Below are positions 17,319 through 62,877 of a stretch of DNA of 64,000 nucleotides, one piece after another. The position numbers and the translations under genes were made by a program. The notes beneath the pieces are model-generated. The model was not told where the DNA came from and made no database searches. It was given only the letters and a program-made list of their open reading frames with translations. Position 1 is the first letter of the stretch; each line of letters begins with the position of its first letter. This DNA comes from Mastigias papua. Taxonomy: Eukaryota; Cnidaria; Scyphozoa; Rhizostomeae; Mastigiidae. The stretch lies in NCBI GenBank assembly GCA_964019165.1, contig OZ025267.1:21970003-22034002 (forward strand), written 5' to 3'.

Positions 17319-20300
17319 ATGGAGAAAAGTTCGCAGAAACTCAAAGCGACAGCCAATTGTTGCGATGGGAGAGCAAGGTTCTCTTTGGTAATGGTCTTCG
17401 TTTTGGCACTTGCAAATACGGTTATGCATTTATCTCGCGAGAAAAGATTGATGTCGCTGGATTCTGAGATAAAATCTTTACAGCAGAAAGTTGCACAGCG
17501 GCAACTACATAAACCGCACATCCATGTTGCAAAACTAGGCCAGTTAATGAATGAATTAAAGGAAGCTCTTCAGCAAGGTAATGCAGTGAAGTTTGGATAG
17601 ATTTCTGTTGATGATTCTGTTTCCCTTATTACTATAAGTGAAGAAATTGAGTTTCATTGTAAATGATGTGTAAATGATAAATGGGAAAACAGGACAAAAA
17701 CACCCATACGCATAGAAGCACAAGCAGAGTATCAAAGCATAATGGTGTCGGCCGTCAGGGATGCTCCACTTGACTATGACAGGGGGCAAAACATTAGTAG
17801 GGGGTGGAGCTATGTAAAATATTGGTTGTATGTGCTCCCACAATAGTAGATTTTGGCCTTCGGATTCTTGCTAATGAAAAGTACTCTTGACTAAACATCT
17901 GCAAGTGGTCCTATTTCAAAGGGTACCCTTTGCCCCTCCTGACCTTCCTCGACGAAGGCAGGGGGCAGCTTCCTGTCATGCCCCACAAGGGTAGGCGGCC
18001 CTTTCGGTTGTAGTTGATAATCATCACACTGGTACTGATGGTTTTCGTGATGCTAGACTGCCAGTGTTGTTACTGCTAGTGGCGTATGGCGCGGCATAGT
18101 GACACTACTGTTACTTGTGGTGGTGGTTGTGGTTGGTATGGTTAGGCGGTGTAACTTGATGCATACACTGATTTCTAGTGAAATAAATGCCACTTGATTT
18201 AACGTAACTTCATTGTATGTTCAACTTCTTCCAGGTTAATTATTTATGTCTTTTTGTCGTCTTTTATGCAGATGATGAAATTACTGTTCATTACCGACAG
18301 AAGCGACATTCCCCAGAAAAACCAGTCAAATCTATATTGGTGAGCTCATTTATCCAATCCCTTCACCTGCTTGAGAGCTACATGCTTAATTGCGGTAGTG
18401 GCTCCCATGCTTCAAACATGAGTTTGTTGTGCAAAACTGGCAGACGAGGAAAGCCAGGCCCAAGAGGTCCAAAGGGTGATGCTGGTCGTCTTGGCGCAAG
18501 AGGCCCCCCGGGATTGCTCGGTATTGATGGCCAGAAAGGTGAGAAGGGTGACCCTGGACCGAGGGGGTCTCCTGGGCTCTCAGTTGAGAAACCCCAACTC
18601 ACAGAGAGGCCTTCTAACGTTACAACAAAGGAGAACAGAACGGTTACATTTTTATGCAAAGCGAAAGGGCACCCATTGCCCGAGATGGAATGGAGAATAA
18701 ATGAGAAAACGGTAAATAGTTCATCTTCTCGGATAAAGATAATAGGAGACTTTGGACTGCAAATCGATAATGTGCATGCTACAGACGCTGGCAGTGTTGA
18801 GTGCATTGCTAAGAACATCTTTGGAAATGATGGAGCAGTGGCGAAACTTATTGTTCACAGTAAGTGCTTTCTTTTGTTTTGTTTACTAAATGCAATAAAA
18901 CATCGATCTTGGCTACAGTATTCTTACAATTGGCTATGCCTATTTGTTTAATCAGTAAGAAAAGCAATCATCAAAATACAGCAACACAAACGAAAACAAT
19001 TGTAGTGTACTGTGCTATCCAAAGATGGAAAAGAGACAAGGTCATCTGATTCCCCACTTTGGATTGCACCTACAATTGTGGCATTTTATCAAACAACAAA
19101 GAAGTAAGTACGAGATGGAAAAAAGAAAGATAGCTTACTATGATAGCAATCAATGAAGAAAAATAAATGCAACTTGTGCATATGCGATCACCCAAGTTAA
19201 ATTTGCTATTAATTTTCATGCCCATTGCTAGCAAACTCTGTTATTATGCTCTAGAACAAGGGTATGCATCCTACGACCGACGAGCCACAATCGGGTCCAC
19301 GAAAGGATTTCTTGTGGCACTGAAATAGAGAGCCCAGATGGTCCTATTCTTTGCTGATTTCTGTGTATTGCGGAATTGTTTAGATTTATTGGATTCTTAC
19401 CAATGCAAGCCTTGCTTAGTTTAGTGTACCTTTGGCCAATTTGACGAACAGATCTAACGAATCTCGCCCACCCTCCTGAAGGTTGCCCACCCCTACTACA
19501 GGGTTGTTTTAGGTCACAAGTTACTGTTTTTCTTGGTTATTGCCTTTCCCTTCCTCTGCTACTTTGCAAGTCAACTGTGTCATTAATGGAGTCACCTGTC
19601 AACAAACATAATATGGTTTTCAATTATTGGAAGTCATAGTCCCTTACCATAATTCAAATTTTTAGCACAATTCCATATAAAGTTATGTAGAAGGGCGGAT
19701 AGCTTTAGCTGTTTCCTCATAGTACCTATATAGTAGCACACTATCATAGTACCTATTCATAACTGAAGCAATGAACCCTATACACGGAAGAGAGTGGATA
19801 CGTTTCCTAAATGCAAAAGTCAACGTTTTTGTGGTTTGCACACTTTAAAATAGTATTTCATGCTTGAAGATTCCAGATTTATTGGTGATGACGTTACTGG
19901 GAGTTGAAGTTCTATAGACATACGTTGGCTCGATAATTTGAAGAAATAGGACCTATGAAATATCTATAACCCAAGAAATTATTTTATATTACGGCTGTAA
20001 TTTTGGTGTCCTTTTTGCATAAAACTATAGCTAAGCCATCCATTTATGTGCACCCGGATCGTGTGTTAGCCGTGGAAGGTGATGAGGTTACAGTGTACTG
20101 CAATGCAAGCGGAGTACCAAAGCCAAAAGTGACATGGAAGTCTGTCATAGGAGAAAGCTCCAAAAGTATGATCACGTTGCCAAATGGAAATTTGATTTTA
20201 CGAAGAGTAAAGAAGATGGACAGTGGGATCTATCGATGCACAGCGACAAATTCTATTGGGTCATCAAGCAAGTCCTCCTTTGTAGTAGTTATGCCAGGTA

Positions 20301-22186
20301 AGTTGTGATAATTTATCAATGCTAATCATATACCACCTCATTTCCAAAAGGAGGCTGTTGGGGCAGGCCTGTGTTGGAAGTAAGGAACGAGGCAACATGG
20401 ACCTGACATTCTACCTTTTTTCAATTTCCTTGCCACATTGGTATTCCGTAAGACTTTTTTGCATATGCTGCGATGATGTACAGGTGTAGTCAATGTAATG
20501 TTCCTCTATTTGACAATGGAAATCTAGTTCTTTTGAAGAGTTAACCTCCTCTGCGATCCTAATATCAAAATATCACCAAAACTCTGATTGGCTACTTTTC
20601 AACGAAGGATATCAATAAAGAATGGAATGAATAAGTTGTAGATGAGAGCTTACAACTTACAAATCCAGAGTTTTGAATGACAACCATGATGCCTTTGCTG
20701 TAGGAATCAGAGAGCCTATTTTCTCCCAAACTAATTGACCAACCATCATGCAGGATTCTGACCACACATGCTGAGGCTAGGCCCATTCTGCATGATGATT
20801 CGTCAATTAGTTTGGGGGAAAATAGGCCAAACAGGACTCTCAAACATTTAGCGGCTATGCTACGGCAGAGCTCTCTAAGAATCGAACAACTTCAAAAATT
20901 TACGTTAACTAGGAATTGGGTAGTATTGTTAAAGTATGACTTTGTTTCTAGGCAATGGAGACAGGAAGAAGTTTACAAACAATGGACGTACTGGAAGGGT
21001 TGGGGTAATAGAAAAATATACAATTCCTTCAACTGGATCATACCGAATAAAAGCTGGAGGAGCACGAGGTGGTAAACATGTTACGAACTATGGATCCTAT
21101 CCAGGTAAATCACATTATCTAAATTAACATGAGAGATAATGAAAAACAGCTGCTACTACAAAGCGAGGGAATAGGAGGAGAAATGATAATAGATAAAAGG
21201 CGCACTTTGAGCTACAGAGGGAGGACATATGATATACGTTCTGTAGCACAATCATTAACAAGTTAGAATGAAAGGCATATCTTTTTTCTGCTGCAGTTTA
21301 GTGTTCATTATCTTATCTCTTAGGCCATTGGTTTGGTTACAAATATTCCGTGTCATTTTTCCTCTTTGAATACCTTTGCATTCCCCATTTCCCTTCCCCA
21401 CTAGTATGCATGGATCTCTGAAAATATTCTCTCATCATAGGAACATTTTACGGTGGTCGAGGTGCAACAATGCAAGGTGATTTCTACTTTTCTGCTGGTC
21501 ATGTCCTTAATATTGTTGTTGGTCATCGTGGTGGCGATTCTGTGGAGGTGAAGGACGGACAGTCGACTACAGCTACTGCTGCTTCATTAGGTTTGTCCAT
21601 AGAAGATAATGCAGGAACAGGGGGAGGAGGAGGATCGTTTGTGTATTCAAGTTCAGGTGTGTTATACATTGCAGCTGGAGGTGGAGGTGGTGCATCAGCT
21701 GGTTGGAATGGTGTTGATGGACAATCTGGAACAAGTGGAACTGCTGCTGTTGGCAAAAGCTCTACATTAGGTGCAGGAGGGACATCAGGACAAGCTGGAC
21801 AGTGTTGTAATACAGGAAGTTACCATGGAGGTGTAGGTGCCGGTTGGAATAGTACAGGGAAAGAGCGTGAAGGGACTTCACATGGAGAAAGAGGAGGAGG
21901 TAAATCTGAAAAATGGATTGGAGGTAGAGCTGGCACTATGAATTCAGGAAATAATGGTGGTCCTGCTCCTGGTGCTGTTGGAGGTTTTGGAGGTGGTGGT
22001 GGTGGCGCTGAAGATAATGGTGCATCTGGTGGTGGTGGAGGTTATTCTGGTGGTGGAAGCGGAGGATATTCAAATGCTGCTGGAGGTGGAGGGGGCTCAT
22101 ATTGTGGAGGAAGTAGTTGCAGTGGAGTCACAGGTGGGAATACTGGAAGTGAATATGGATTTGTGATTATATCAAAGATATTTTGA
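17319..22186 (+). CDS. gene A: type II membrane collagen-Ig-Ig-glycine-rich protein
   Basis: Five exons with GT-AG junctions, all phase 1: 17319-17577, 18272-18859, 20031-20297, 20952-21104, 21441-22186 (2013 nt, 670 aa). The ATG context is good (A at -3, G at +4). Residues about 20-38 form a single hydrophobic segment after a basic N-terminus, without a signal-peptidase-like site, so I predict a type II signal anchor. A coiled-coil-like stretch (about 43-85) follows. RQKR at 95-98 matches the furin consensus, so the ectodomain may be shed. Sixteen uninterrupted Gly-X-Y triplets occupy 143-190. Two I-set Ig domains follow, 192-282 and 283-371, with Cys pairs, Trp and DxGxYxC or its variant DAGSVEC. 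Residues 372-670 are a glycine-rich domain of the ALK/LTK ectodomain type. Membrane collagens and gliomedin share the anchor, furin-site and collagen plan. I know no named orthologue; an adhesion or matrix role is inference. Confidence 0.85.
19254..19500. mobile_element. possible hAT-type repeat in gene A intron 2
   Basis: The left edge AAGGGTATGCATCC and the right edge GGTTGCCCACCCCTACTACA are imperfect inverted repeats of the AGGGGTGGGCAACC type found at the ends of many hAT elements. A target duplication is not clear, so the boundaries are approximate. Confidence 0.4.
20708..20860. mobile_element. fold-back MITE, family F1, copy 3 (intron 3 of gene A)
   Basis: The arms AGAGCCTATTTTCTCCCAAA and TTTGGGGGAAAATAGGCC are inverted, with the family core AATTGACCAACCATCATGCA and outer right end TTTAGCGGCTATGC. 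The outer left arm is eroded. It sits between the second Ig exon and the first glycine-rich exon. Confidence 0.8.
21441..22186 (+). other. gene A terminal exon: glycine-rich (ALK/LTK-like) cassette
   Basis: This exon encodes about 248 residues dominated by GGGGG runs with interspersed aromatic and Cys residues ([21 protein letters not shown]). About nine in ten residues match the corresponding exons of genes B (29199-29938) and C (39757-40499), although the three genes differ upstream. Similarity ends abruptly at the C-terminus ([10 protein letters not shown] here, YGFVTISE in [10 protein letters not shown] in C). The antisense Pro-rich and in-frame Val/Leu-rich open frames over it are shadows of the biased composition. 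Confidence 0.9.
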
Positions 22187-22654
22187 ATGTCCATGTCCAT
22201 GTCATGACTTACATAATACGTTATATTGTAAGTCGTAATACTGCATGTACCTGCAGGCTCTTTCCTACTCTTCATCAACTGGAGACATTTTTGATCGTAG
22301 CATAACTGTCTAGAAATTATCATAGTTCTCTCTAAGGTTTTCATAAATGGATTATTTGTATGTATTATATTATACCTTTCATTTTATCTGTTGTTTCACG
22401 ATGCATGATATGAACTCTTGTTTTCTCCATGCCAGCAGGCCAGACCAGGGCTGTTTATTCGTTTGTCGAACATTCTTCATTCGTCAAAACAGTGACAACG
22501 CAATTCCTAGTTTTGAATTGAATTGCATTTCAACTGTCTTTCTTGGAAAACTCATCGAGTTACGAAGCAGGTTAAGATATGACTTATTCTGCTTCTTGTC
22601 AATTGAGCAACTAGAAATTAATGATTCGCTCTCGGCTCCTACATTTTTATTCTA
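22187..22654. other. 3' flank of gene A
   Basis: Probable 3' UTR and downstream DNA. I could not assign a polyadenylation signal. No other feature seen. Confidence 0.35.
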
Positions 22655-23740: not shown

Positions 23741-23993
23741 TACTTTAAGTAAACTTCCACGTGCATAGGCACGTAATGATTCAAAAAATAGTTATGCAGC
23801 CTCATCTAAGGCACTTGAGGTACAATCAAACCAGATACAAAGATTACATAAAAGACCTTATAAGCTTACAAGTATGCTACAGGTCAATAGAAAAGCACAG
23901 GACAGACAAAAGTGGATACAGTTTGCTAAGGATGCCACGACGACAGATTAACCATATGATTTAATAACCGTATAATGATGATGATGATGACGA

Positions 23994-24168
<175 letters not shown>

Positions 24169-24212
24169 CATTCAAAAGCTACAGCCACTAAGAAACTTTT
24201 TATCACATAAAT

Positions 24213-24319
24213 AGGATTGAAGAAACAACTTCAACATTTTTAATGAAGACGCAAGTCGAAACGTACGCGAGTCGAAATGTCGAAAGGTTTAAAAATGTTG
24301 GAATTTTTTCTTGAATCCT
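24213..24319. repeat. long hairpin with hammerhead-like core between AT arrays
   Basis: Arms of about 31 bp, 24213-24243 (AGGATTGAAGAAAC...) and 24288-24319 (...TTCTTGAATCCT), are inverted complements with few mismatches. Within the loop, GAAGACGCAAGTCGAAACGT gives a GAC-GCAA-GTC stem followed by GAAAC, which resembles stem II and the 3' core of a hammerhead. The 5' core reads TTAATGA where CTGANGA is required, so two essential positions are changed. Probably a dead ribozyme or the end of a Penelope-like element. Confidence 0.4.
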
Positions 24320-24336
24320 ATATATATATGTATATA

Positions 24337-24516
<180 letters not shown>

Positions 24517-27500: not shown

Positions 27501-27930
27501 ATCAGTTTGTGCTAGGCTGTAAATAGCTGAATAACTTAACGAAGTGAAAAACAATGAAGCATCTCTGATTGCAAATAGGCGTTGCTTCCACGAACAGTTT
27601 ATTTTAGAGGTAGCTAATCAACCTTGTATAGAGCTTTATAGATTGTTTCGCTGTGCCCCCTAAATGGCATAAGGGAAGTTAGAACATTTAGGTTTTGGAC
27701 AATCAAGGTATTTATCCATATGCCCATCGCAACAACTCTACAAAGATGCTGCCTTCTTTCAGCTGCCTTTACAATATTCTAACTGCACCGAGGGGTACTT
27801 TTTTACTGTTAAAAGCACTATTTTTTACTCAGCTTATCATGCAGTGATATTCCGTTCCATGTAGTTGGTAAGAATATACCACAATATGAAAATTGAGCAA
27901 TTGGCATCTAGCATATAATAGGATAAAAGT

Positions 27931-27967
<37 letters not shown>

Positions 27968-29198: not shown

Positions 29199-29938
29199 TT
29201 ATTCAGAGATTGTCACAAATCCATATTCTCTGGCAGTATTCCCACCTGTGACTCCACTGCAACTACTTCCTCCACAATATGAGCCCCCTCCACCTCCAGC
29301 AGTATTTGCATGTCCTCCGCTTCCACCACCGGAATAGCCTCCACCACCACCAGATGCACCATTATCTTCAGAGCCACCACCACCACCTCCAAAACCTCCA
29401 ACAGCACCAGGAGTGGGACCACCATTATTTCCTGAATTCATTCCACCAGTTCTACCTCCAATCCAATTTTCGGATTTACCTCCTCCTCTTTCTCCATGTG
29501 AAGTACCAGCGCGTCCTCCGCCAACACTATTCCAACCGGCACCTACACCTCCATGGTAACTTCCTGTATTACAACACTGTCCAGCTTGTCCTGATGTCCC
29601 TCCTGCACCTAATGTAGAGCTTTTGCCAACAGCAGCAGCTCCACTTGTTCCAGATTGTCCATTCACACCATTCCAACCAGCTGATGCACCACCACCACCT
29701 CCAGCTGCAATGTATAACACACCTGAACTTGAATACACAAACGATCCTCCTCCTCCCCCTGTTCCTGCATTATCTTCTATGGACAAACCTAATGAAGCAG
29801 CAGTAGCTGTAGTCGACTGTCCGCCCTTCACCTCCACAGAATTGCCACCACGATGACCAACAACAATATTAAGGACATGACCAGCAGAAAAGTAGAAATC
29901 ACCTTGCATTGTTGCACCTCGACCTCCATAAAATGTCC
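29199..29938 (-). other. gene B terminal exon: glycine-rich cassette
   Basis: Same domain as the last exons of genes A and C. It differs from C at about one residue in twenty and from A at about one in eleven by eye. About 30 bp of the adjoining intron also match gene A (TCTCTGAAAAT.TT.TCTCATC before the acceptor) but not gene C. Confidence 0.9.
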
Positions 29939-32900
29939 CTACGATGAGAAAACATTTTCAGAGATTCATGGTTATAAGTGGGGAAGTGAAAAATACCGTA
30001 AATCCTCGAATAAGCCCCTGGAGTCTTATTTGCAAAATGATTTTTTAGGTGGGGGCTTATTCGAGTGGAGGGCTTATTCGGATGTGGGGGCTTATTCGAG
30101 GACTTAGGTACACGGAGCTGTTCAACAATGCATCATCGTTTTAACAGTTGATTGAGCAGATATTTCTGCAGCCTCGGTAGTTTGCTTTGTTTTCGAAAGA
30201 ATTCAATTGAAACGATAAGTTAAGGTAAAGCTAGTACAGTAAAAACCCTCATATAAGAAACTCAGTTTTTCTGATCAGGCTGCTGAGTTTCTTATAAAAA
30301 TGAGTTTCTTATAAAAATGAGTTTCTTATAAGACGATCAAAATAGCTGGACCAACTGGGAAAAGCGAAAACTCTATGACCGATAATAAATATTGTATCAT
30401 ATTGTATTTTAATTTCTTACTAAAGGCTTTGCATCATACATGTCATGAACCAAACACTCAAGATTAATGACAAAGGGCGCACTATTTACTTTTCACACAA
30501 ATTTTTAGTCCAAAAATTAGTGCTTATAACAAACTGGAAAAAATTCAGGCTGACCAATTTCCTATAGTTTGGTACATTTCTTTGAAAAAGTCCGCCTGGA
30601 GTTTCTTATAAGTACACTTCTTATATGCGGGTTTTTACTGTACTTAGAATCTTGAAGGGATGAACCTTCCGGAATTTCGTTGAATGATTTGAGTCAATAG
30701 ACGAGACTTATTTACAACGTAGTGCAGTTGAATTGAATTTAATCTTTCTTTACGGGTGTTGAACATTTCAAGATGACTGAATCTGTTTTGCTTATTTTTC
30801 GTTCAAGCCATCCCTTGGTTTACCTTGTATTAAAGAAGGACATTTCCTTTGAAGCACTTGTTGCAGGATCAGCATCATAGAATGTAGAATGTGGAATCAT
30901 TTTACTAAATCAGAGATGTTACTAGAAAGGTGAGATCGCTCTAAAGCAAGAGGAATTTCAATACAACAATTCAGACATTAGTCTCTTATATCAGCAATTT
31001 GAAAATGGGAGTAGCTGCTTAATAGCTTGAAAGATTTTCTGAAAGCTGACTGTCTTACGTGTAGAGATAAACAGTATATATGTTAATTGCTGAGGTGCTG
31101 GTAGTTCGAATTTTATGCTTTTGTGACAATGAGCTTGTATAAACTGTGAGTTTTCAATGTGGACTGTCAAGATCAGACAGGTCTTTAATTGCAAACTCAA
31201 CGCAGTGTGCAATTCAATTTTTCATGGAATAAAGCTGTATTGGTGTTATTCTGAAGTTTTATCTTATTCACTTACATAAAAAAATCAAATTTGCACCAAT
31301 TAGAACTGAGGTTGGTCGACCCTCTTTAATGTTTTCTGCTCCTCTTGTGGCCCCATTAAAAAAATAACATCCCACTCCTGAGATATAGCCCCTAAGATTG
31401 TATTGCACAAAATTGCCAATATGAAAGCAGGAGACAGTTATGGTATTACAATTAAACACACATAGCAGTATTTATTACCATAGCATCAATAATCCATATT
31501 CCCACTTCATAGCTGTAGAACATTTGGTTCTATATGTATGGTAATGAAAACAGTGGTTGGTAAGCTCACTGATAGCTCACCACTGTTCTGCCTTTCATTC
31601 TGTACAAATTAACTGATGTGAGTCATTTTCCCGCCATGCATCGATCACGGCACAACTTACATTAAAACTGTTAGAAGTTTTCTATCAACTATGCCTTTTG
31701 CTATTATGCCTTTAGGTAAAATGGCGCACAGCAAAAGATGAGGCTAAAGCTTGATAAAGAGCAATGCTATTAAGTAGCAAAGACGTAAACTTTGCTACAA
31801 ATCTCCCATTATCACTTAAACTTCTTCTTTTCGAAGTTGGACCATATATAATATTTTTGGAATAATTAGAAATTGTTACAAATATTTAGCTAAAATCAGA
31901 CTCCAGATAGATAACCAAATGTAATCAAAAAATTAACTGCTGCCCATTTTTGATTGGAGAACAAATAACACATCAAAATATTAAAGCACTTAGAAGATGG
32001 TATCTCACAGGTTTTGATACAATACAATTCAAACTTAGATTAAATACCTGGATAAGACCCATAATTTGTTACATGTTTACCACCTCGTGCACCTCCAGCT
32101 TTGATCGTATAGGTACCTGTTGTAGGAATTGTGTATTGTTGAATGACTCCACTTCTGCCCGTGTAACCAGCATTTGTGAAAGTTGTCGTAGTGACTAAAG
32201 ATTGAAAATAAACTGAGATCCAATCTATTTTGGTTAGTTAGCTCGTATGCTAGTAGCAGAATACGTTTCAAAGTCAAACCAATCCATTTTCAAAGCATCT
32301 TAAAGAGTGCTTTGAGAAATGTTTTCAACATAAATTATGGCAGAACTGGAAGCCATTTTCCGATTGTGCTTGAAAAAATATCATTCCTTGGCTGATGGAA
32401 ATGAGAAATTTGGAAATGAGAAGCATTGATCTAGCAACAACATGCAATTAGCAATAGAGATCAAGTAAGGTATATTTATTTTCTTTCAACCATTGCCATG
32501 GATCATGATAGCTAAGTGATTGATTAGAAAGCAAAAATAGACATTGACTGCTAATGAAAATTTTCAGAGATGTATCGAATCGATAATCAGTAATCAACGA
32601 TGGAAGGCCGAACAACGGAACCAATAGTTTAAAAGTGCGATGACTTAGAGTGAAACAATGCTATGGTTGAAAATTCATGACAATTTATCACATCGTATAG
32701 AAATGAATGATAGATAACCTCTTGTCTGACAATTGGTCCCGGTGTATCCTGCGGCACAGGAGCAAGTATATCTGTTCACATAATCTGTACATGTTCCACC
32801 ATTTTGGCATGGAGAGCTGCTACATTCATTTATGTCTGAAATTATAGCAATATATTATTAGCAAAGCTCTTTTTCAACAACATCTAACTTTGAATCCATG

Positions 32901-35900
32901 TACAGTTCAAACATGCAAGGTGAAAGTACATTTAATTTCAAACCACACAATATCAATTATGCACATACCTGTTTGGCAATTTGTTCCTATGTAGCCTGCA
33001 GCACAGGAGCATGTGTATTTGTTCACGTGATCTGTACATGTTCCACCATTTTGGCATGGAGAGCTGCTACATTCATTAATATCTGAAATTACAATGGTCG
33101 AATCAGTAGAACTGGGTTCTCGTTGACGATTGTCCACGACAGAAGGACCAATGCCAAGTTAAATAAGGCCCTCGAAAGAGCTTTGCAAATTGCATGCAAA
33201 GATATGGGAAATAGTTCTGCTAATAGTTTAAATAAATCACTGATAGTCCATCACCGCAATTTGCAGTTGCTTATGATTGAAATATTCAAAACAAGGAACA
33301 ACCTCAATCCAACTTTTATGAAGGATATCTTTGCAGAAAAAAGAGCTATTATAGCCTGCGAAATCCAAATCTTTTGCAACTTCCGATAGTAATAACCGCA
33401 ATATGTGACACAGAAAATATTCAGTGTAGAGGCTGCTCTTTATGGTCCTCACTGCCCAACTTTTTGAAAGACAGTAGCACTTTGCAGCACTTTAAAAGAG
33501 AATAAACCAGTGGAATGGTATTTGCTGCAACTGCAGAATGTGCAAAGCTTTTATTAAGGACTTAAGCTATTTAGATTAGTTTATTGTCCTTTTTAATTCA
33601 TTATAATTATATCCCATCCTTATTTCTAGCATAGTTGGCCTGAATTAGCTTTTTCTCGTTAGCTATCGTAGAAGTCAACTTCAAATAAATCGATGGTGAT
33701 GATAATGATGATGATGACGCATTCCTGTAACTTATTGACTATCCAACACAGTGGAGTGAAAGCTAGAAGATATCAAATGCAGAATGTTAAAAATGGACAT
33801 ACTTGTCTGACAATTTGTTCCAGTGAAACCTGCAGCACAGGAGCATGTGTATTTGTTCACCTGATCAGTGCATGTTCCACTATTCTGGCATGGAGAGCTG
33901 CTACATTCATTGATATCTGAAATTATAGTGACAGAATCAGTAGAATTGGGTTCTCGTTGATTGCATCCCTATAATGCATCGACAGTCCGAAGCAGTGGAA
34001 TGAAAGCTAGCAGATTTTAAATAAAGAATGTTAAAAATTGACATACTTGTTTGACAATTGGTCCCGGTGTATCCTGCGGCACAGGAGCAAGTATATCTGT
34101 TCACATAATCTGTACATGTTCCACCATTTTGGCACGGAGAGCTGCTACATTCATTTATGTCTGAAACAAAAATAACAGAATATGTTGAGCTGGGTTCACA
34201 ATAATGTCGTTCTTGTAATCCATTGACAGGCTAAAAGTCCGTTGCGAAGGAATATAATGAGTAATAAAGCACAAAATATCTAACATGGACAAACCTGTTT
34301 GGCAATTGGTTCCAGTGTAGCCAGCAATACAGGAGCATGTGTATTTGTTCACATGATCTGTACATGTTCCACCATTTTGGCATGGAGAGCTGCTGCATTC
34401 ATTTATGTCTAAAATAAAGTAACAGAATATGTTGAGCTGGATTCTCAATAACGTCATTCTTATAATCAATCGACCACCAGTAATTACAAGATTAAATCTT
34501 ATCAAATGATGCAATGCAAAACATCGAGTGTGGACCTGTTTGACGGTTTGTTTCACTGTAGCCTGGAACACAGGAGCATGTATATTTGTTTACATGGTCT
34601 GTACATATTCCGCCATGTTGGCATGGAGAGCTACTGCATTCATTGATATCTGAAATGTAACGTCATCATGCTAATTATAATTAACGTCCATACTTGGACT
34701 ACACTCACATTCCTTTGTCTTCATTTTGATCTGTTTTTGCTCCCAAAGGCGGAGCTGGTTTTCCTCTCTGTTCACACAACTCCATTTTCATACAGAAAAG
34801 GACATCTATCAATTGATGTTCATATTTGTCCTCAAAAACGCATCTGGTTGACGGCTTCTTTCATTTTGGCACTGTTAGTAGCTTACTCAAACTCTGCCAT
34901 TTTTGGTGTTCACGCTACAGAGTTACATTTTTCTTTAGCTCCTTTTTCATTTAACTCTGTTTTTATCATCTTTTTCATATAGCTCCATTTGGAAATGAAT
35001 GAGAACGCAAAGACAAAACGGAGCTAAACAGATCCGTTTTTGTTCAAGAAAGGACTAGTGTGAACGGGCATTTTCAATTCCCTCTTCGTGTGCCTTAATA
35101 GCAACAGACAGAAAGGCCTGTCATGGAATCTCAAAAATTTAGACGTCATTTTTCAAAGCACAAGAAGAATTCTAAGAGCGTTACATAAGAGTTTTGATCT
35201 GAGAGTGCATCTGTAGCCTTTGATTACTATTGTGAATTTTCACTTCTAGATTGTCTTTTTTGGCATATGTTCGAGCGATAACAACTACGATGAATTGCAA
35301 TTTTGTTTCCTTGCCATCATAACTCGTTTACACGAGAATCAGTAGAAACAGGCCTAAAAACCTTACTATTGATAAGCAATGTTCATACACCATTAAACCC
35401 ACAATGGTTGGATCTATCCTAATGTAATTAATAAGAAAAGTTGAATAGGAGTAAAGTTTTTGCTACCTGTCTCACAATTTATTCCAGTGTAACCAGGGAC
35501 GCATGTACAGCTATATCTGTTTACATGGTCAACACATGTTCCATTATTATGACATGGAGAGCTCTCACATTCGTTTATTTCTACAAGGAAAACAGGATAT
35601 CATAATTTCTTGTAAATGCCCAGAAATTTGCAGTAAACATGCTTTGGAGCGTAAAAGACAACCTATTGGCGAATACGAGAAATAACAAATATTAAGTGAA
35701 ATACATTGCAAATGCCTCACGTTTGACATCATAACTTGAGTTGCAAGGAAACAAGTCTTGGATATGGAAGCTAACATTGATAATGAATGGTAGAGACCTT
35801 ACCTTCACAGGTGTATCCATTGGATGATGAGCAAGAATCGAAGCAAGAATAGCCTGGGCTGCATGCAATCAATCTACAGCGAGGACTTGCCTAAATATGC

Positions 35901-37420
35901 AAAATACATTTTGATAAGGATACTCTTCAGTCCTGAAGGCTTTCAAAGTACTTAGGACTACCAGTGCTAAGATGGACAAGATTGAATCATGCAAAGTTAG
36001 AACTATCATGGGTGAAACTTTTGGTGTAAAGTAGAGTCTTAATAGTTTGTGTTCTACTCTGCACTTCAAGCAACTATTACTATATAAGAATTGGATTGAT
36101 TTTGGTCAACTGTAAGTGTGCATTGTTCAATATGCAAGCTATTGCCATCGCACACGATTCTTTTTATACAAAGGGTTCTAATGCCAAAAGCTGTGTTAGG
36201 AAAACCTAGCGCTTTATGACCTGATAGTGTTGAGATAGTTTTTAATAGAAATTGTGTGAGGTGTGGCTTTCCTATTTTACCAGCTACTTATATGGTGGAT
36301 TACTTGTGAGAAAGGTTTAAACAAGAGTGCTGTGACCTACCAAGTGTGAAAAATTTACAATCAGTCAGCTTCTTACCCACAAATGTTTTCACCATCAATA
36401 GATAATTTGCAGTTGCTAGGACGCAAAACAGTCCTTTGGCTTAAAAATATTGAAAGCGTTAAGTAATGCAGATAGGGCACCCAATGGATAAAATACCAGT
36501 TATGGCCCAACTAGGTTTTATGAAGCATTTTTTGTCTGTCAAACTTTAAGGGCTTCTCCAGCATTTAGTTAACTTCAACAGTGGGCTGAATGCGCATAGC
36601 AATCATTAATCTGATGCATCCATGCTTGAGGAGTTACAAATGCTTATGTTGCACCAATCCAGCAAAACAGTTGGCAAATAAACTTGAGGATAATTTGTGA
36701 AATTGTATAACAATTTTGAAACAGTTGCGTTTCTGACATAGACCAAATACATCAAAAGACATCAGCAACCGCTAGACTGTTACGTGAGTATTCGCAATTG
36801 CATTATGGGAAGCTTTCCTTAAAGTACAGAAAATTCTGTTCAAAGATGATGTTCGCTTCTTGGTTGGTGCATATTGATCATTAATCGGAAATAAATTTGC
36901 AGCTTCGTTTAGTTGATCATCGCTTTGGTATTTCGTGTACTGCAGAATGACAATAAAAAACATTTCATTTTCTTCAGGTAGTGCTTTTCGTCTTCAAATC
37001 AACATTCCTATTTTGCATCATAAAGAGATTACAAAAATGCAGTATGATAAAATAGAAGGACAGAAATACCTGAATAACTGGCTCATAGATGTTCCATTCC
37101 GGTTTGTCCAAAACTACTGCACTCGAGTTAGTGCTACGTATATCCAACAGTTCACAATTGTTTTCGTTTCCAGTTGCAGTCTTCTTAAAATTCACTGATA
37201 GACAATTGAACGTTTTCAAACAATCACGAACACAGTACGCTAACGATGTGACTTTTCGTAGAATAGTATTGGAGGAACCTGTGAGCTTAGCGTTCTTCTT
37301 GAATTTCTTGAGCATTGTATCACGGCGGCATTGCGTCCGATGAATTGTGACTTCCTCGCAACTGATTTCGTATTCATATATACAAATGAGACTAAACATA
37401 AGTAAATGAGACCAGATCAT
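29199..37420 (-). CDS. gene B: secreted PAN-EGF(7)-glycine-rich protein
   Basis: Exons in transcript order: 37420-37070, 35890-35803, 35580-35467, 34649-34536, 34408-34295, 34160-34047, 33916-33803, 33082-32969, 32835-32719, 32194-32048, 29938-29199 (2127 nt, 708 aa; intact frame). I start at the MIWS methionine because gene C has the same start and upstream DNA is not conserved. Residues 1 to about 18 are a signal peptide. Residues 20-117 are a PAN/apple-type domain ([34 protein letters not shown]). A 29-residue Cys-rich linker follows, then seven EGF modules (147-413), one per exon, with the calcium-binding pattern D/E-I-N-E-C and the hydroxylation consensus C-x-D-x4-Y-x-C-x-C. Residues 414-708 are the glycine-rich domain shared with genes A and C. 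No membrane anchor is seen, so the protein is probably secreted. It is convergent with A and tandem with C. Function unknown; matrix or recognition roles are inference. Confidence 0.85.
29994..30110. mobile_element. MITE with TCCTCGAATAAGCCCC ends
   Basis: Left end TACCGTAAATCCTCGAATAA; the right end reads inverted as TACCTAAGTCCTCGAATAAG. About 117 bp, with a third internal GGGCTTATTCG copy. It lies in the last intron of gene B, 56 bp upstream of the terminal exon. Confidence 0.75.
30237..30640. mobile_element. pogo-like MITE with CAGTAAAAACCC ends
   Basis: TA-flanked 404-bp element in the last intron of gene B. Left end CAGTAAAAACCCTCATATAA; right end inverted CAGTAAAAACCCGCATATAA. The left interior repeats GAGTTTCTTATAAAAAT. 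No transposase frame. Confidence 0.8.
33140..33700 (+). mobile_element. non-LTR retrotransposon tail in gene B intron
   Basis: Plus-strand frames carry the reverse-transcriptase C-terminal signature: [35 protein letters not shown], then after a frameshift [20 protein letters not shown] and HFKRE. Stops and shifts show it is dead. It ends in a GATGATGATGA microsatellite tail at about 33690-33720. It lies antisense to gene B between two EGF exons. Confidence 0.75.
34686..35065. repeat. intronic repeat paired with 45813-46165
   Basis: A T-rich element ending in GTGTGAACGGGC. It shares a series of segments (CTCCATTTTC, CATTTGTCCT.AAAA.GCATCTG, TAGCTCC.TTTTCATTTA, GAGCTAAA.AGATC.GTTTTTGT) with the repeat in gene C. 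Both lie in an EGF-array intron of their gene. Probably a hAT-like MITE. Confidence 0.65.
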
Positions 37421-39756: not shown

Positions 39757-40499
39757 TTATATTGTATAGATTGTCACAAATCCATATTCACTTCCAGTAT
39801 TCCCACCTGTGACTCCACTGCAACTACTTCCTCCACAATATGAGCCCCCTCCACCTCCAGCAGTATTTGCATGTCCTCCGCTTCCACCACCGGAATAACC
39901 TCCACCACCACCAGATGCACCATTATCTTCAGAGCCACCACCACCACCTCCAAAACCTCCAACAGCACCAGGAGCGGGACCACCATTATTTCCCGAATTC
40001 ATTCCACCAGCTCTACCTCCAATCCAATTTTCGGATTTACCTCCTCCCCTTTCTCCATGTGAAGTACCAGCACGTGCTCCACCAACACTATTCCAACCGG
40101 CACCTACACCTCCATGGTAACTTCCCGTATTACAACACTGTCCAGCTTGTCCTGATGTCCCTCCTGCACCTAATGTAGAGCTTTTGCCAACAGCAGCAGT
40201 TCCACTTGTTCCAGATTGTCCATTCACACCATTCCAACCAGCTGTTGCACCACCACCACCTCCAGCTGCAATATACAACACACCTGAACTTGAATACACA
40301 AACGATCCTCCTCCTCCCCCCGTTCCTGCATTGTCTTCTATGGACAAACCTAATGAAGCAGCAGTAGCTGTAGTCGACTGTCCGCCCTTCACCTCCACAG
40401 AATTGCCACCACGATGACCAACAACAATTTTGAGTACATGACCAGCAGAAAAGCGGAAATCACCTTGCATTGTAGCACCCCGACCACCGTAAAATGTTC
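39757..40499 (-). other. gene C terminal exon: glycine-rich cassette
   Basis: Third copy of the shared exon, nearly the same as gene B's (for example [18 protein letters not shown] against [18 protein letters not shown]). Unlike the A/B pair, the intron just upstream of its acceptor shows no similarity to the other two. Confidence 0.9.
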
Positions 40500-43400
40500 C
40501 TTTGGTGCGAAAAAATATACTAATAAGTTACTCTTTACAACAGAATGGTATCACTAGAAGATAGAGAGTAAAGGCATGCTAAAAGAATGTCCCGCTTTTT
40601 CGTGCTACAGTGAAGTTCTGTAGTAGCAACAGACTCTTCAAATAAATAATAATAAAGCATCAATTGAATACCAATACAGTATAATATAGTTGCTTTGATA
40701 TAATATATTTATCTTAAAACAAATACAATACCTGGATATGATCCATAGTTCGTTACATGTCTGCCACCTCGTGCGCCACCAGCCTTGACCCTATAGATAC
40801 CGGTAATAGGAACAGTATATTGTTGAATGGTTCCACTTCTACCCGTATACCCAGCATTTGTGAAAGTTCTCTTGGTGACTAAGAGGGGCATAAGATGAAA
40901 TCACTTAGTGAAAGGTAATTGACGCGGTTCACCTTGACTTGGTACTTACTTAGGAAAGATGTTTAAACAAAATTTGTTCTAATATTTTCCCAAAGTACGA
41001 AGTCTAAGTAAACCAACAAATCAAAATCAGCCAGCATCAACAGCATGAAAGAAGCAATGAAAGACCTGAAACGCTTATTCCTGTAAGCATTCCATTAGCA
41101 CTCATTCATTGGTTCTGAAAAGAGAAGCTGACGTACCAATTGATATATGAAAATACAGTCAACCTTGCATAATTCGGATCCATTTTATCCGGATTTTTGC
41201 ATATTCCGGACAGAATTGCTAAGTCCAATTAGTTTCCTATTAAAGTGCAACACTGAAAAAGTTTCTACGTAATCCGGATTTTCTGTAATCCGGACAAAAT
41301 CAGCCAGTCCCGTTTGATCCGAATTATGTGAGGTTGACTGTACCACTCAAATGGTGTTGGCTCATTGTCACTCAAATTGTATTAACATCACATGACATAT
41401 AGCAACACCACATGACAAATACCAACATCACATGATATATGCCAACATCATATGACAAATACTAACATCACATGATATATGTCAACATCACATGACAAAT
41501 ACCAACATCACATGATACATGCCAACATCACATGACAAATACAAACATCACATGATATATGCCAACATGACATGACATATAGCAACATCACATGACATAG
41601 AAACATCACATGACAAATACCATTATCACATGACATATACCAACATCACTTGATACATACCATCATCACATGACACATAGCCACATCACATGACACATAC
41701 CAGTATCACATGATATATAGCAAAATCACATGACATATATAAAACTAATGAACTTACAGCCAAAATGAACTTACATGTTTGACAATTGGTCCCAGCATAA
41801 CCAGCAGGACAGGAACATGTGTATTTGTTCACGTGATCTATGCATTTTCCATCGTTTTGGCAAGGAGAACTGCTGCATTCATTTATGTCTGAAATAAGCA
41901 GAACTCTTTCTCAATAAAATCAACCTTTCAATTCATGGTTAGCTCAAACATGCAAGATGAAAATACATTGAATTACACACCACAAAATATCAATTATGCA
42001 CATACTAGTTTGACAATTTGTTCCAGTGAAACCTGCAGCACAGGAGCATATGTATTTGTTCACATGATCAGTACATGTTCCACTATTCTGGCATGGAGAG
42101 CTGCTACATTCATTGATATCTGAAATTACAATGACAGAAGCAGTAGAACTGGGTTCTCAATAATACCGTTCACTTAATCCATTGACAGGAATGCATAGTA
42201 ACGTTAAATTGAATAATAAAAAACAAAATTTCGAGCATGGACATACTTGTTTGACAATTGGTTCCAGTGTATCCCGCAGCACAGGAGCATGTGTATTTGT
42301 TCACTTGATCTACGCATTTTCCGCCATTTTGGCATGGAAGGCTGCTACATTCATTGATATCTGATATTAAAGTAATATATTCATCAAAACTCACGTCTCA
42401 ATAACTGCATTCCTAGGGTATGCAATACTTACAATCCAACAAGGACATATAAAGACTAACAGAATACAAAAGCAGAACTTGAAACATGGGCATACCTGTT
42501 TGACAATTTGTTCCAGTGTAGCCTGCAGCACAGGAGCATGTGTATTTGTTCACGTGATCCACGCATCTGCCGCCATTTTGGCATGGAAGGCTGCTGCATT
42601 CATTAATATCTGAAATGCCAGGTCAAATAGCTAGTTAACTTGAGATTTGTTAAAGCCTTTCTATGCTTATACAATGAGGTCTCATAACACTGTCAGCAGA
42701 AACAGCTCTTTGAAGATTTCAATGCTCTTGTATTCTTGAATTTTGTAGCTGGTGTCACAGTGACGTTTAATTTTGCTCTGGTGCATATTTATCTTTACAA
42801 CATTTTATCATTAACTTTTCTAATGATAGGCCCTTTTATTCTATTCAAAATGACCTAAAAAATTTTCGAAAAAAGTTGGGCATGCAAGAATGCAAAGTTG
42901 CTTCCACTACGCAAGAGGAAAGCAAATCTTTCCTTAATAACAATTTTGCTCTGTTTCTGATGAAGCAGTTCTTCTAAAAAAAGAGTTTGGTAAACTCCTC
43001 ATATCTGACAATTGATCTACAATTATAGATCGGCATACCTATTGCAGGTAGGTTGTATTTGTTTAGATTTGGTGGGAGTAATATATTGATACGCTATTGT
43101 CAATTCTTTCATAGCATGTGGCTGGTATATTAGCAGGTCGGTTTTGGTGCATTTTTTGTTGCACATGCAGAACGTATATTAGGGTGATCAAATGACGAGT
43201 TATCAGGAGTTTTAGTGTACCGAGTGAACTGTGAACTGAGATAAAAGTCGGCGAATTTTGCTATATGATGCTTTTGACGAGGTTTTCTAATGGTGACGAT
43301 ACAAGTCTTTCTTATAAGAAAGCTTTCTTCGCCTATAACTAAAATCTCTTTACTTTTTCATGACTTTAGTACTAAAATTTTCATAAGATTTTCCTAGCGA

Positions 43401-46400
43401 GAATGTTCGGCTTTGTGTGGCATTGCAGTTTTACACACAGACAGACATTACACAAACATTACACGGCAATATATAGATTTTCATAGGAAATCTAAGCAAA
43501 TTAATCAAAAGAGATGTTAGGCATGCGTGAAAATTGGAACTTCAAACGTGTATCAACTTATCAGCGTTTTTAGGTTTTAGAAATCCAGTACAGAGCTTTC
43601 TTAACTTTTTGAGTAGCTGAGTACTGCTTTCTCGCAAACCAATTTTCTTATTAAATAAAGACGTACAATTGTGTCCAATCGATGAGCGTCGTTGTTTTAA
43701 TATATTGCAAATTCGGCAGCTAATGCCATAAGCATTTGCTAAACTATAGTACTGATACAAGCAGAGAGATACCCAGAAAGATCTATATATAGTATTGATG
43801 AATATTTAACCTCAGTGTTGAACTAAGGAACGTAAAGCGGAGTCAGGTTGCGAACTAAAATGAATTTTGTCAAAGTACATTTTACAGCCTATCCTACCAC
43901 ACTGTGAAGGAGGGACTTAGGTTGAAGACCACAAGAATAATCAGAAGTTGCGTAGAGGCTCATAGGATAATTTCTTTTCTAAACTTCATCCATATAATTC
44001 AGACATTAATGTACAGCATCAAACCTTATTATTTGTTATAGGTAGTGTGAATTGGCAAGCTTGCAAAAAGCATTAAAAACAAGTAATCATAATTAACTAG
44101 AGAGGAATCCAATTAGGACAGGTCCAAGGTTTGTTATCGGTTGCTATAAACAAAATAGATTATTCAGACTGGTACTTTCGAGAAAATCAGAGAGGCCACC
44201 AAAGATCCCAAATTAGTATAAAAAGCAATTTTCAAACAAGAGAAAATTGATAATTCAATTTTCACAGAAGCTGTTACTAATACTGTTTACTGAGTATGAT
44301 AATTGAACTTGGAAAGATATCGGAGTACCAAAATACAGCAAAGGCACATGGCATTGGAAGATTCCTTGGAAACCACGGTGTCACTATGAGCCTCAGGGTA
44401 GAGATGAAACAGATTCCAATGCTAAAATAGCCACGTCACTATCTTAACAAAGCTAATTAAATTGACAAGTCCAGTTAAATAATTTGGATACATCCCAAGA
44501 TCCATCAAACATATGAAGGGTAAACGAATTACAAACTCAATTAAAGCATAGAATAGTATGCGATTTATATTTACCTGTACCACAATGGATGCCATTATAC
44601 CCTGGAACACATGAGCACGTGTATTTATTGACACCATCTACACAGTTGCCACCGTTCTGGCAAGGAGAGCTGCTGCATTCATTGATATCTGAAACAATCC
44701 GGAAAGGCTAACATCAATCTCTGTTGCTTATATCTGAATATCCTCTAATCAGAAGAACATAAAATTAAAACTTTACGAATTCACTAATAGAGTGTGGCAT
44801 AAAAACTCACTTGTCTCACACCTGATTCCATTGTAGCCTCTTACACATGAACATGTATATTTGTTCAGGTGATCAGTGCATGTCCCACCATTTTGGCACG
44901 GAGAACTGCTACATTCGTCGATCTCTGAAAAGAGAAACAAAGGAATAGCTTATTTCTGTTACAAATACAAGATTCCCGATAGTCCCAAAAACTTAGAAAA
45001 CACAAATAAGTAACAAAGCTCTTCTTTCCACATCCAACTATGAAATAATCACAAAAATACCAAAATATATCACCTTTCTCACAATGGGCACCAGTGTAAC
45101 CTGAAACACACGAACACCTGTATTTGTTCACGAGATCAATGCATGTTCCACTATTCTGGCAAGGAGAGCTACTGCATTCATTGATATCTAAAATATGATA
45201 CAAGGTTAGATTGTCTTCAAAATTTGATACACATCCTTAAAATTTAGGAAAAAGCAAGCAAAAGTGCTTGAAAATCAAAAATCTAAACGAAACCAAGAAA
45301 CCGAATCGAGAAGGAAAATCGAATATGATTAGGAATCGAAGAAATCCTTACTTGTCTCACATTTGATTCCAATGAACCCTGCTGCGCAGGAGCATGTGTA
45401 TCTGTTAAGATAATCTGTACATGTTCCGCCATTTTGGCATGGAGAACTGCTGCATTCATTGATTTCTGAAATAAAAGTAATAACGGCAGTTGAACTAGGT
45501 TCTCATTAATGACATTCTATTAATCCATAGATAGAAGAAAATTGCAGTGTGAAAATGTATTAAATGAAAAATACACAAAATCAATCATGGACATACCTGT
45601 TTGACAATTTTTTCCAGTGTAGCCCGCAACACAGGCACATGTGTATTTGTTCACATGATCTGTGCATGTTCCGCCATGTTGACATGGGGAACTATCGCAT
45701 TCATTGATCTCTGAATAAAACAAGCAAAGAATTGAACAGACTTTTCGCATTTCAACATTATTTCAAAATTCCAACAGAAAGTTTAAAAACAATATTGACA
45801 CAATGGATTGGTAAACTTAGGCCACTTTCACTTTACTCCATTTTCGTTTTGGCCCGTTTTTACTCCCATAAATGAAGCTGTTTATTTTTCTCTTCGCGCT
45901 ACTCTGTTTCAAGCAAAAACGAATATCTATCACTTGGCGATCACATTTGTCCTTAAAAATGCATCTGTTGGTCACTTCTTTTATATTTGTGTTGTTTCTT
46001 AGCGTTTTCAAATTCCTCCGTTTTTGCCTAGCTGCATTTTCATTTAGCTCCATTTTATCATCGTTTTTATTCAGCTCCGTTCTTATTGTGGATTATTGTG
46101 AACCCAAAGCCAAAAACTGAGCTAAATAGATCTGTTTTTGTCCAGAAATGGAGTAGTAGTTTGAACAGGGTCTTAAAATAATACTGCCTATCAACAACGT
46201 CAAATAGGTGGAAAAATTTCAGCCGAATAAATTATACCGCTTCCAACATCAAAATATGAAAAAATGTCGAAGGTAGTACTTATCAGCTTACCTATCTCAC
46301 AGTGGCCACCAATGTATCCAGGGGCACAAGAACATGAGTATTTGTTCACATGATCATTACATGTTCCATCATTTAGGCATGGAGAGCTAATGCACTCATT

Positions 46401-48609
46401 GATGTCTGAAAGCACCACCAAAAGATTTAATTGCGTCTCCTTAGTTAGTTATTGAAAACTTATAAAATAATGAGAGAAAGGTTATCTAACATTCATCCAT
46501 AAAATATTTGATATTTAAAGATAACGTCAAAATATTCATTAACTGAATTTCGAATACCAGCTTACTTGTCTCACAGTTGATTCCTGTGAAGCCTGGGACA
46601 CATGAACAAGTGTATCTGTTCAAATGATCTGTGCATATTCCACCGTTTTGGCACGGAGAGCTGCTGCACTCATTAATTTCTGAAAGTCAGTTAAAATTTG
46701 ATGACTACCAAAGTAACCATATCGCATGCGAAAGAAAGTGTCTGAAATTTTTGCTGTTCGGTGCTTTTTGTAGGAAGGCGAAAAATATATAGAAAATAAA
46801 CTACAATGCTAATAATAAAAGCAAAGAAATTATCAGTTTATGAATGATCTAACGGAGATGAGCGACTTTCTTTCTTTCAAAATAAACAAAATGAGAAAAG
46901 GAGAATTGAAGCAAAACTTCCACTTACCTGCCTCACAATTTATTCCAGTGTAACCAGGAACGCATGTACAACTGTATCTGTTAATATGGTCAACACATGT
47001 TCCATTATTTTGACATGGGGAGCTCTCACATTCGTTTATTTCTACAAGGAAAACAGGATATCATATTTTCTTGTCAATGCCTAGAAATTTGTAGTACAAC
47101 AGGCTTTGGGGCGCAAAGGACAGCCTATTAGGACGAAAAATAATAAAATGTAAGTTAAATAAATACTATCACTTCATCTTGGATGAAGATTTGGCGTCAC
47201 CGGTCGGTCACAACGAAAGAAACCATGGGAGGGAAACTAAACTCAATAAAGAATGGTAGAGACCTTACCTTCACAGGTGTATCCATTGGATGATGAGCAA
47301 GAATCGAAGCAAGAATACCCTGGGTTGCACGTAATCAATCTACAGCGAGGACTTGTCTTCAAAAATAAAATGAGAATTATAGATGTGAATATACTTCATT
47401 AATCACGAGCATCATATAGTTAGAGACAGAACAAGAAAGAAAATGCAACACTTTAGTGTGCAACAACATAACATCATTAGTCAACAGTAAAGTCTGTCAT
47501 AAGTCCTTGTTTTGTGCCAATTTTCTACAAAGTACATCCTTCTCTGATACATATGTCATCAGCGGATTCAGCTTGATTTTAACATCTGAAAGTTAATCGA
47601 GTATTTGTTGCATTGTGCAGCCAGATTGCACTTGAACTTGGAATAGATTTCTCTTCCTTTAAAATCACTTGGGCAACAGCAAATTCATGTCGGAAAGGCT
47701 GCAGGAAATTTGAATTTCTAAAGAAACTGGGAATTCTATGGACAACATGTTTTGCTATATAACACCATAGCTGGTGCTTCTTTCAATTGTTGGTCGAAGA
47801 TTTGAGACTTTACCATGTGGTATACCATTTTCAAAATTCCAGTTAAAATAAAAAGCTGTAAAAACGGCATGCTGTAGTTAATCGGCCGAGACAGGACGTC
47901 TCTTCATCTAGTTGTACTGAAACCCATGTACAGTCCGGCAATAAAACTAAAAGACTCCTAAGAGGAGTTCGTCATCACACTCAATTGGTATATTCACACT
48001 ATCGATTAGTTGTTCGAAAACAACACAATTCTCGTACTTGTGTTTATTGATTGCTGCATTGATCAAGAGTTGAAAATGAATTTACAGCATCTATTGGCTC
48101 ATAATCGCTTCGGCACTTCATACACTGTAGACTCACAATAACAAGCCTTTCATTTTCTTCAGGAAGTGCTTTCCTTCTTCAAATCAACATTCCAATTTTG
48201 CATCATAGATCAAAAGATTACAAAAGTTTAGTATGATAAAATAGAAGGAGAGAAATACCTGAATAACTGGCTCATAGATATTCCATCCCAGTTTTTCCAA
48301 AACTACTGCACTCGAGTTAGTGCTACGTATATCCAACAATTCACATTTGTTTTCGTTTCCAGTTGCCGTCTTCTTAAAATTCACTGATAAACAATAGAAT
48401 GTTTTCAAACAATCACGAACGCAATACGCTAACGATGTGACTTTTCGTCGAATAGTATTGGAGGCACCAGTCAGCTTAGCGTTCTCCTTGAATTTCTTGA
48501 GCATTGTGTCACGACGGCATTGAGTCCGATGAATTGTGACTTCCTCGCAACTGATTTCGTATTCATAAAGGCAAACGAGACCAAACACAAGTAAACGAGA
48601 CCAGATCAT
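39757..48609 (-). CDS. gene C: secreted PAN-EGF(12)-glycine-rich protein
   Basis: Tandem paralogue of gene B. Exons in transcript order: 48609-48259, 47356-47269, then twelve 114-bp EGF exons starting at 47041, 46679, 46405, 45710, 45465, 45187, 44924, 44688, 42609, 42360, 42119 and 41888, then 40878-40732 and 40499-39757 (2697 nt, 898 aa; intact frame). Signal peptide [23 protein letters not shown]/apple-type domain (to residue 117), Cys-rich linker, twelve EGF modules (147-602), glycine-rich domain (603-898). The PAN exon, its donor-side intron flank and the linker exon are almost the same as in gene B. No transmembrane segment seen. Gene C has five more EGF modules than B. Role unknown; extracellular matrix, adhesion or recognition are the reasonable candidates. 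Confidence 0.85.
41156..41340. mobile_element. CAGTC-end MITE, family F2, 185-bp copy 1
   Basis: TA-flanked. Left end CAGTCAACCTTGCATAATTC and the inverted right end CAGTCAACCTCACATAATTC. Interior with four TCCGGA/ATCCGG motifs. Exactly the same length as the copy at 56049. Lies in gene C between the glycine-rich and EGF exons. Confidence 0.85.
41386..41740. repeat. minisatellite, about 21-bp unit
   Basis: Roughly 16 imperfect units based on CCAACATCACATGACATATA, some alternating GACAAATA and GATATATG endings, suggesting a two-unit higher-order repeat. It lies directly upstream, on the plus strand, of gene C's last EGF exon and begins 46 bp after the F2 MITE. Confidence 0.9.
41775..47041 (-). 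repeat. gene C EGF-exon array (12 units)
   Basis: Twelve 114-bp phase 1-1 exons, each one calcium-binding EGF module with six Cys. A 1.9-kb gap (42610-44574) without EGF exons divides the array into blocks of 8 and 4 exons. The last four units resemble gene B's units most closely, and unit 42119-42006 shares exon and flanking intron sequence with gene B's 33916-33803. Confidence 0.9.
45813..46165. repeat. intronic repeat paired with 34686-35065
   Basis: Diverged copy of the gene B intronic repeat in the same orientation, ending AGTTTGAACAGGGTCT. It lies between EGF exons 46405-46292 and 45710-45597, a position comparable with that of its partner. Confidence 0.65.
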
Positions 48610-60718: not shown

Positions 60719-60815
60719 CAGGCCCGTAGCAAAGGGGGGCCTGGGGGGCAAGGCCCCCCTGGATTTGTGAAATTTGACCCTGTGGCCCCCTACAAAAATG
60801 AATTTTATATGTGTG

Positions 60816-61002
<187 letters not shown>

Positions 61003-61862: not shown

Positions 61863-62757
<895 letters not shown>

Positions 62758-62766
62758 AATACATAA

Positions 62767-62824
62767 AATTCAAGAAATAAAATTACTCCATTTCATGAAA
62801 TGGAGTAATTTTATTTCTTGAATT
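62767..62824. repeat. 58-bp perfect palindrome
   Basis: Two 29-bp arms without a spacer, centred on TTTCA|TGAAA at 62795/62796. AT arrays lie on both sides. It can extrude as a cruciform and has no coding role. Confidence 0.97.
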
Positions 62825-62877
62825 CTATCTATACTTATAAATTTATAAATTACTTGGTTGGTTGTAGCTTCTTGACG

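What the first reader, a model, noticed from the sequence alone, without database searches (positions are those of the whole stretch)
17319..48609. Three-gene extracellular cluster with different front ends and one shared glycine-rich tail
Genes A, B and C end in nearly the same two-exon glycine-rich domain, yet A begins with a membrane anchor, collagen and Ig domains, while B and C begin with signal peptide, PAN and EGF modules. Sharing a C-terminal cassette across unrelated architectures at one locus suggests exon shuffling followed by sequence exchange. Such variable-front, common-tail clusters would suit adhesion or self/non-self recognition. The architecture is seen; the role is inference.
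Basis: partly seen in the sequence, partly recalled or inferred. Interest (0 to 1): 0.85.

Follow-up and report, generated by a model that had tools for sequence, protein, structure and literature searches.

The report
Three genes sharing one ALK-like tail
In what looks like a jellyfish relative, three neighbouring genes with quite different front halves end in the kind of domain that ALK and LTK receptors use to catch their signals, and the last exon of that domain appears to have been copied between the genes.

Summary
The three genes are really there, at the stated coordinates. A (plus strand) encodes a membrane anchor, collagen and two Ig domains; B and C (minus strand) encode a signal-like start, PAN and EGF repeats. 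All end in a two-exon glycine-rich tail. By profile search and by the predicted fold of a relative, this tail is a TG domain (TNF-like plus glycine-rich), the ligand-binding part of ALK/LTK, here without kinase. One correction: only the last exon is nearly identical (93-96% DNA, dS 0.10-0.15). The first tail exon is diverged (65-82%, dS 0.6 to about 2). So the last exon looks copied between A and B/C. Cnidarian relatives carry the tail on many fronts. There the tails group by lineage more than by front, and the collagen-Ig stalk seems to have met this tail at least twice. Likely role: one binding head shown on a sheddable membrane stalk and on secreted PAN-EGF rods; this is inference. No evidence was found for the self/non-self idea. 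RNA, polymorphism and the rest of this genome could not be tested.

The parts
17319..17577 (+). Gene A exon 1: short N-terminus and membrane anchor (residues 21-39, window 17379-17435), type II by charge
   Evidence: hydropathy 1.89; 5 positive, 2 negative residues before it
18272..18859 (+). Gene A exon 2: furin-like RQKR (18295-18306), two cysteines, 16 collagen Gly-X-Y triplets (18439-18582), Ig domain 1
20031..20297 (+). Gene A exon 3: Ig domain 2
20952..21104 (+). Gene A tail exon 1 (start of TG domain)
21388..21440 (+). Intron end shared with B (B: 29939-29991), not with C; the tract reaches past the exon
   Evidence: (pair I1)
21441..22186 (+). Gene A tail exon 2 (rest of TG domain, stop)
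37070..37420 (-). Gene B exon 1: signal-like N-terminus and PAN domain
35803..35890 (-). Gene B short cysteine-rich exon
32719..35580 (-). Gene B: seven EGF exons (35580, 34649 degenerate, 34408, 34160, 33916, 33082, 32835)
32048..32194 (-). Gene B tail exon 1
29199..29938 (-). Gene B tail exon 2
48259..48609 (-). Gene C exon 1: signal-like N-terminus and PAN domain
47269..47356 (-). Gene C short cysteine-rich exon
41775..47041 (-). Gene C: twelve EGF exons
40732..40878 (-). Gene C tail exon 1
39757..40499 (-). Gene C tail exon 2

Best explanation
Three extracellular proteins present one binding head, a kinase-free ALK/LTK-type TG domain, from two kinds of carrier. A is a type II, collagen-stalked (hence probably trimeric), probably furin-sheddable stalk with two Ig domains. 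B and C are secreted PAN-EGF(n) rods. Shown here: the gene structure; the homology of the head (through relatives); a last exon far more alike between A and B/C than the exon next to it; tails that follow lineage more than front. Inferred: the last exon was homogenised by gene conversion or exon replacement between the inverted (A) and tandem (B, C) copies. Inferred and weaker: keeping it alike keeps one partner (a ligand or matrix component) common to the membrane and secreted forms, while the fronts decide where the head sits. By step: gene structure and TG homology about 0.95; exchange of the last exon about 0.8; shared-partner function about 0.35.
Against: Holding A's tail with P0003's is not rejected (p 0.065); the PAN clade B+C+P0004 is rejected only just (p 0.044). 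Runs of A=C (3, p 0.42) and B=C (4, p 0.92) are no longer than in shuffles, and overall clustering is modest (p 0.026). Between B and C, tail exon 2 (dS 0.10) is not lower than the short exon (0.11) and not far below PAN (0.22) and EGF 1 (0.27), so there tail exon 1 (0.62) may be the odd one. No outgroup DNA, so codon-level constraint is not fully excluded. Lineage grouping of tails could also come from separate shuffling in each lineage. The window's own tails do not reach Pfam's ALK_LTK_GRD and were not folded themselves. No expression data, no known ligand.
Confidence: 0.65

Rival explanations
1. No exchange: the cassette duplicated once, and tail exon 2 stayed alike because protein and codons are under unusually strong constraint.
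For: Tail exon 2 is conserved among relatives, with long invariant glycine runs.
Against: A-B codons at shared residues: 205 of 218 identical, about 100 expected from codon usage; non-glycine codons 130 of 136 (206 of 221). About 50 intron bases are shared by A and B but not C. Tail exon 2 protein of P0003 and P0004 is 80-86% identical to the window's, whose own copies are 92-96% alike, while in tail exon 1 A is as near to P0004 (78%) as to B (80%) (P0003 is 61-65% there).
Confidence: 0.12
2. One capture: a whole tail exon 2 (with about 50 intron bases) replaced an older one in A or in B, once, rather than repeated exchange.
For: Clean loss of similarity at the exon ends; A=C and B=C runs not longer than chance; B-C tail exon 2 not clearly lower than their other front exons.
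Against: B-C tail exon 2 is much more alike than B-C tail exon 1 (p 2e-6), and A, B and C pair differently along the exon, which suggests more than one event.
Confidence: 0.3
3. The cluster is a self/non-self or allorecognition locus with variable fronts.
For: Ig, PAN and EGF extracellular modules in a cluster.
Against: Only two kinds of front. The part kept alike is the tail. A is type II by charge and B, C have no span by hydropathy, unlike the type I Alr proteins of Hydractinia (recalled). No polymorphism data.
Confidence: 0.05
4. Structural or adhesive matrix: the glycine-rich tail is a cross-linking element like loricrin or silk rather than a binding head.
For: Database names such as loricrin-like; glycine-rich domains joined to known modules occur in cnidarian biomaterials (PMC4944945, passages).
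Against: The tail looks like a whole TG fold, aligned to LTK from residue 127 to 421 of the P0004 model.
Confidence: 0.25

Closest known systems
ALK/LTK receptor ectodomain (TG domain; PDB 7nx0, 7nx1, 7n00)
   Same: Fold and order of the tail; 30-34% identity over 233-245 aligned residues in VIA ranks 1-10 (on relative P0004)
   Different: A, B and C end at the domain: no EGF-like domain, span or kinase after it. Fronts are collagen-Ig or PAN-EGF; ALK has MAM and LDLa (PMC10605310, passage)
Colmedins and gliomedin (type II collagen-stalk proteins)
   Same: A: type II anchor, furin-like motif, collagen, C-terminal head; ectodomains of colmedins are secreted (PMC7848082, passages)
   Different: Head is TG, not olfactomedin
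Collagen-Ig proteins with fibrinogen-like, C-type lectin and other heads (head names from accessions partly recalled)
   Same: Front of A (P0121 E 1e-45, others weaker)
   Different: Other heads. In the front tree the TG head joined such stalks separately in the lineage of A and in stony corals
Cnidarian proteins with the same tail on PAN, EGF, lectin or CUB fronts (among P0004-P0033)
   Same: Tail; PAN and EGF before it in several
   Different: Not shown to form such a cluster; names are uncharacterized, hypothetical or loricrin-like. In Montipora foliosa and Oculina, collagen-Ig and other tail genes share a contig length, so may share a chromosome
BEX/WEX/GASP genes of mammals
   Same: One exon homogenised by gene conversion across otherwise different genes (PMC1274310, abstract)
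   Different: There a 5' UTR exon; here a coding exon

Membership tests
ALK_LTK_GRD / TG domain | Sequence match of the tail to PF12810 at its cut-off | tested here: inconclusive
   Window: no match for A, B or C with E up to 1. Relatives with this tail: 10 of 13 tested pass; P0005 (23.3 vs 24.5) and P0004 (12.1) fall short and P0003 has none
ALK_LTK_GRD / TG domain | TG fold over the whole tail | tested here: met
   [not shown]
ALK/LTK receptor kinases | EGF-like domain, membrane span and tyrosine kinase after the TG domain | tested here: not met
   Stop codon directly after the tail in the models of A, B and C
Colmedin/gliomedin | Type II anchor, furin-like site, collagen | tested here: met
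   Gene A; by hydropathy, charge and motif only
Colmedin/gliomedin | Olfactomedin head | tested here: not met
   No olfactomedin family listed for A with E up to 1
Hydractinia Alr-type allorecognition genes (features recalled) | Type I membrane protein with V-like Ig domains | tested here: not met
   A type II by charge, best Ig match I-set 108.4 (V-set 27.3, cut-off 26); B and C no inner span by hydropathy
Hydractinia Alr-type allorecognition genes (features recalled) | High polymorphism between individuals | not testable with these tools
   One sequence only

The most novel reading that the evidence does not exclude
Cnidarians use a kinase-free ALK/LTK-type ligand-binding domain as a plug-in head, captured again and again by unrelated extracellular carriers. 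Copying of its last exon keeps the head the same on membrane and secreted forms, giving a matched receptor-like and decoy-like set for one ligand or matrix partner.
Probability: 0.25. Interest if true: 0.8.

Novelty: new variant of a known kind. Interest (0 to 1): 0.57.

Why it matters
The TG fold is known as the cytokine-binding part of ALK and LTK. A wide set of kinase-free TG proteins in cnidarians could show what the domain does outside the receptor and gives many natural versions to test for ligands. Exon-limited homogenisation across genes of different make-up would be unusual: a coral genome study calls gene conversion very rare there (PMC10236652, passages).

Tried and rejected
Literature: eight searches, of which some aimed at cnidarian or glycine-rich-domain proteins like these. 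None of their listings showed a paper on kinase-free ALK/LTK-type domains in cnidarians. Only open-licence PMC papers are held and only the top of longer lists was seen, so this is no proof of absence. Passages of PMC7851593, PMC6626399 and PMC7853314 added nothing used here.

A search with the PAN front of C (residues 1-150) gave no protein at E 0.001 from 177 candidates, so PAN fronts were not placed in a tree. phmmer of one tail against the PDB found nothing; the profile did. Further copies of A's front, the PAN exons or the tails in the window: none by tblastn at E 1e-3 (EGF exons not asked). 'Collagen-Ig-TG is one old architecture' was rejected for tails and fronts. Mended steps: the unaligned tail exon 1 codon count was wrong for A and is replaced; the motif found nothing and was redone; one search crashed and was rerun.

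Rows dropped and choices by hand: of P0001-P0035 the tail tree leaves out P0009, P0016, P0024, P0027, P0029, P0033, P0035 and the short P0034; 34 rows remain, six of them from P0001 and P0002. labels 24 of the 34. Its architecture labels are mine: PAN was seen by eye, not by Pfam, in P0005, P0007, P0008 and P0011; P0026 and P0028 likewise (P0028 17.1 vs 21.4). One search scored only the 7982 candidates sharing most words and listed 120 of 145. The front tree has 29 hand-picked rows, 375 of 967 columns and long branches. One search looked at 53 proteins; 19, P0003 among them (N-terminus cut), failed the anchor-plus-collagen filter. On re-check I raised the one-capture rival from 0.25 to 0.3, because B-C tail exon 2 is not clearly lower in dS than their front exons.

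Full report
What is there. Three genes lie between 17319 and 48609, A on the plus strand, B and C on the minus strand, so A's tail stands inverted to theirs. Spliced models read open: A 5 exons, 670 aa; B 11 exons, 708 aa (670 without one decayed EGF exon); C 16 exons, 898 aa. Of 29 introns 27 are phase 1, the classical setting for modules that can be shuffled; the two others are the matching first introns of B and C. Pfam on exons finds collagen and Ig in A and PAN in B and C; on whole proteins two Ig in A, six EGF in B and twelve in C, where collagen and PAN drop out of the lists. A's first exon holds the only hydrophobic span of note (1.89), with more positive than negative charges before it, and RQKR lies between span and collagen. 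A motif of this kind lies there in 23 of 34 proteins with anchor and collagen, 4.2 expected by shuffling (these proteins are related). This is the build of type II collagen-stalk proteins such as colmedins, whose ectodomains are secreted (PMC7848082, passages).

How alike the tails are. Only the last exon is nearly the same in all three: 93.3-95.8% DNA identity and dS 0.10-0.15, against 65.3-81.6% and dS 0.62 (B-C) to about 2 (A-B, A-C, near saturation) in the exon before it. At shared amino acids, identical codons are 16 of 36 against 206 of 221 for A-B (p 2.8e-11); A-C and B-C go the same way. Codon usage alone would give about 100 of 218. Similarity ends at the exon borders, but A and B share about 50 intron bases that C lacks. 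Of 69 variable sites in the exon, 33 have B=C, 17 A=B and 15 A=C. A run of 7 A=B sites near the 5' end is longer than expected (p 0.0013), but A=C and B=C runs are not (p 0.42 and 0.92), and clustering overall is modest (p 0.026). For B and C alone the case is weaker, since PAN, short and EGF 1 exons have dS 0.22, 0.11 and 0.27. Gene conversion or exon replacement between A and B/C is the simplest reading; more than one event is suggested, not proven.

The wider family. The tail search gives 145 proteins, 120 listed. Of the best 34, 27 name an organism, in each case a cnidarian; P0035 is a flatworm, and weaker hits include bacteria. Fronts include EGF, PAN, C-type lectin, H-type lectin, Kazal, CUB and collagen-Ig (some names recalled from Pfam accessions). 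In the tail tree the window's three tails form one group (98/88) beside P0003 and P0004. Tails follow lineage (9 changes, minimum 7, 0 of 300 shuffles as low) more than front (7 changes, minimum 2, 35 of 300). The four collagen-Ig tails as one clade are rejected (p 2.6e-58), and so are their fronts (p 1.8e-8): A and P0003 stand with a C-type-lectin-headed stalk (84/75), the two corals with fibrinogen-headed ones of sea anemones (91/92). So stalk and head seem to have met at least twice, or heads were swapped later. Against a neat story: A with P0003 in the tail tree is not rejected (p 0.065), and the front tree has long branches.

Which animal. The tail tree puts the window outside the 20-row anthozoan group (99/99). 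I infer a medusozoan; the species is not known, and its genome could not be searched.

How it probably works. The part kept alike is the head and the part that differs is the carrier. I infer that A shows a trimeric, sheddable head at the cell surface while B and C carry the same head on secreted rods, and that keeping the last exon alike keeps one partner common to all three. This function is inference. I found nothing for the self/non-self role. Closest printed parallel that I saw for conversion confined to one exon across different genes: BEX/WEX/GASP (PMC1274310, abstract). A coral study calls gene conversion very rare (PMC10236652, passages), which makes this case worth checking in more species.

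Noticed in passing
window 34536-34649: An EGF exon of B has lost its sixth cysteine and has a poor donor site; skipping it keeps the frame, as the EGF exons are phase 1-1.
   Followed up: partly
window 32719-34160: EGF exons 4 and 7 of B are 98% identical, and EGF 5 of B is nearest to EGF 11 of C (96%): the EGF array also seems to be duplicated or exchanged.
   Followed up: partly
window 61387-62293: Two inverted copies of one reading frame (about 150 aa, with SVYVGETCRHFSTRVREH) that looks like a mobile-element fragment; recalled resemblance to GIY-YIG-type ends, not searched.
   Followed up: no
P0001 and P0002: Unnamed proteins that seem to be three TG domains in a row, the first cut short; no other Pfam family listed.
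   Followed up: no
[not shown]
   Followed up: no
window 23962-24530, 60700-61000, 62800-63300: Long TA-rich simple repeats, one pair inverted.
   Followed up: no
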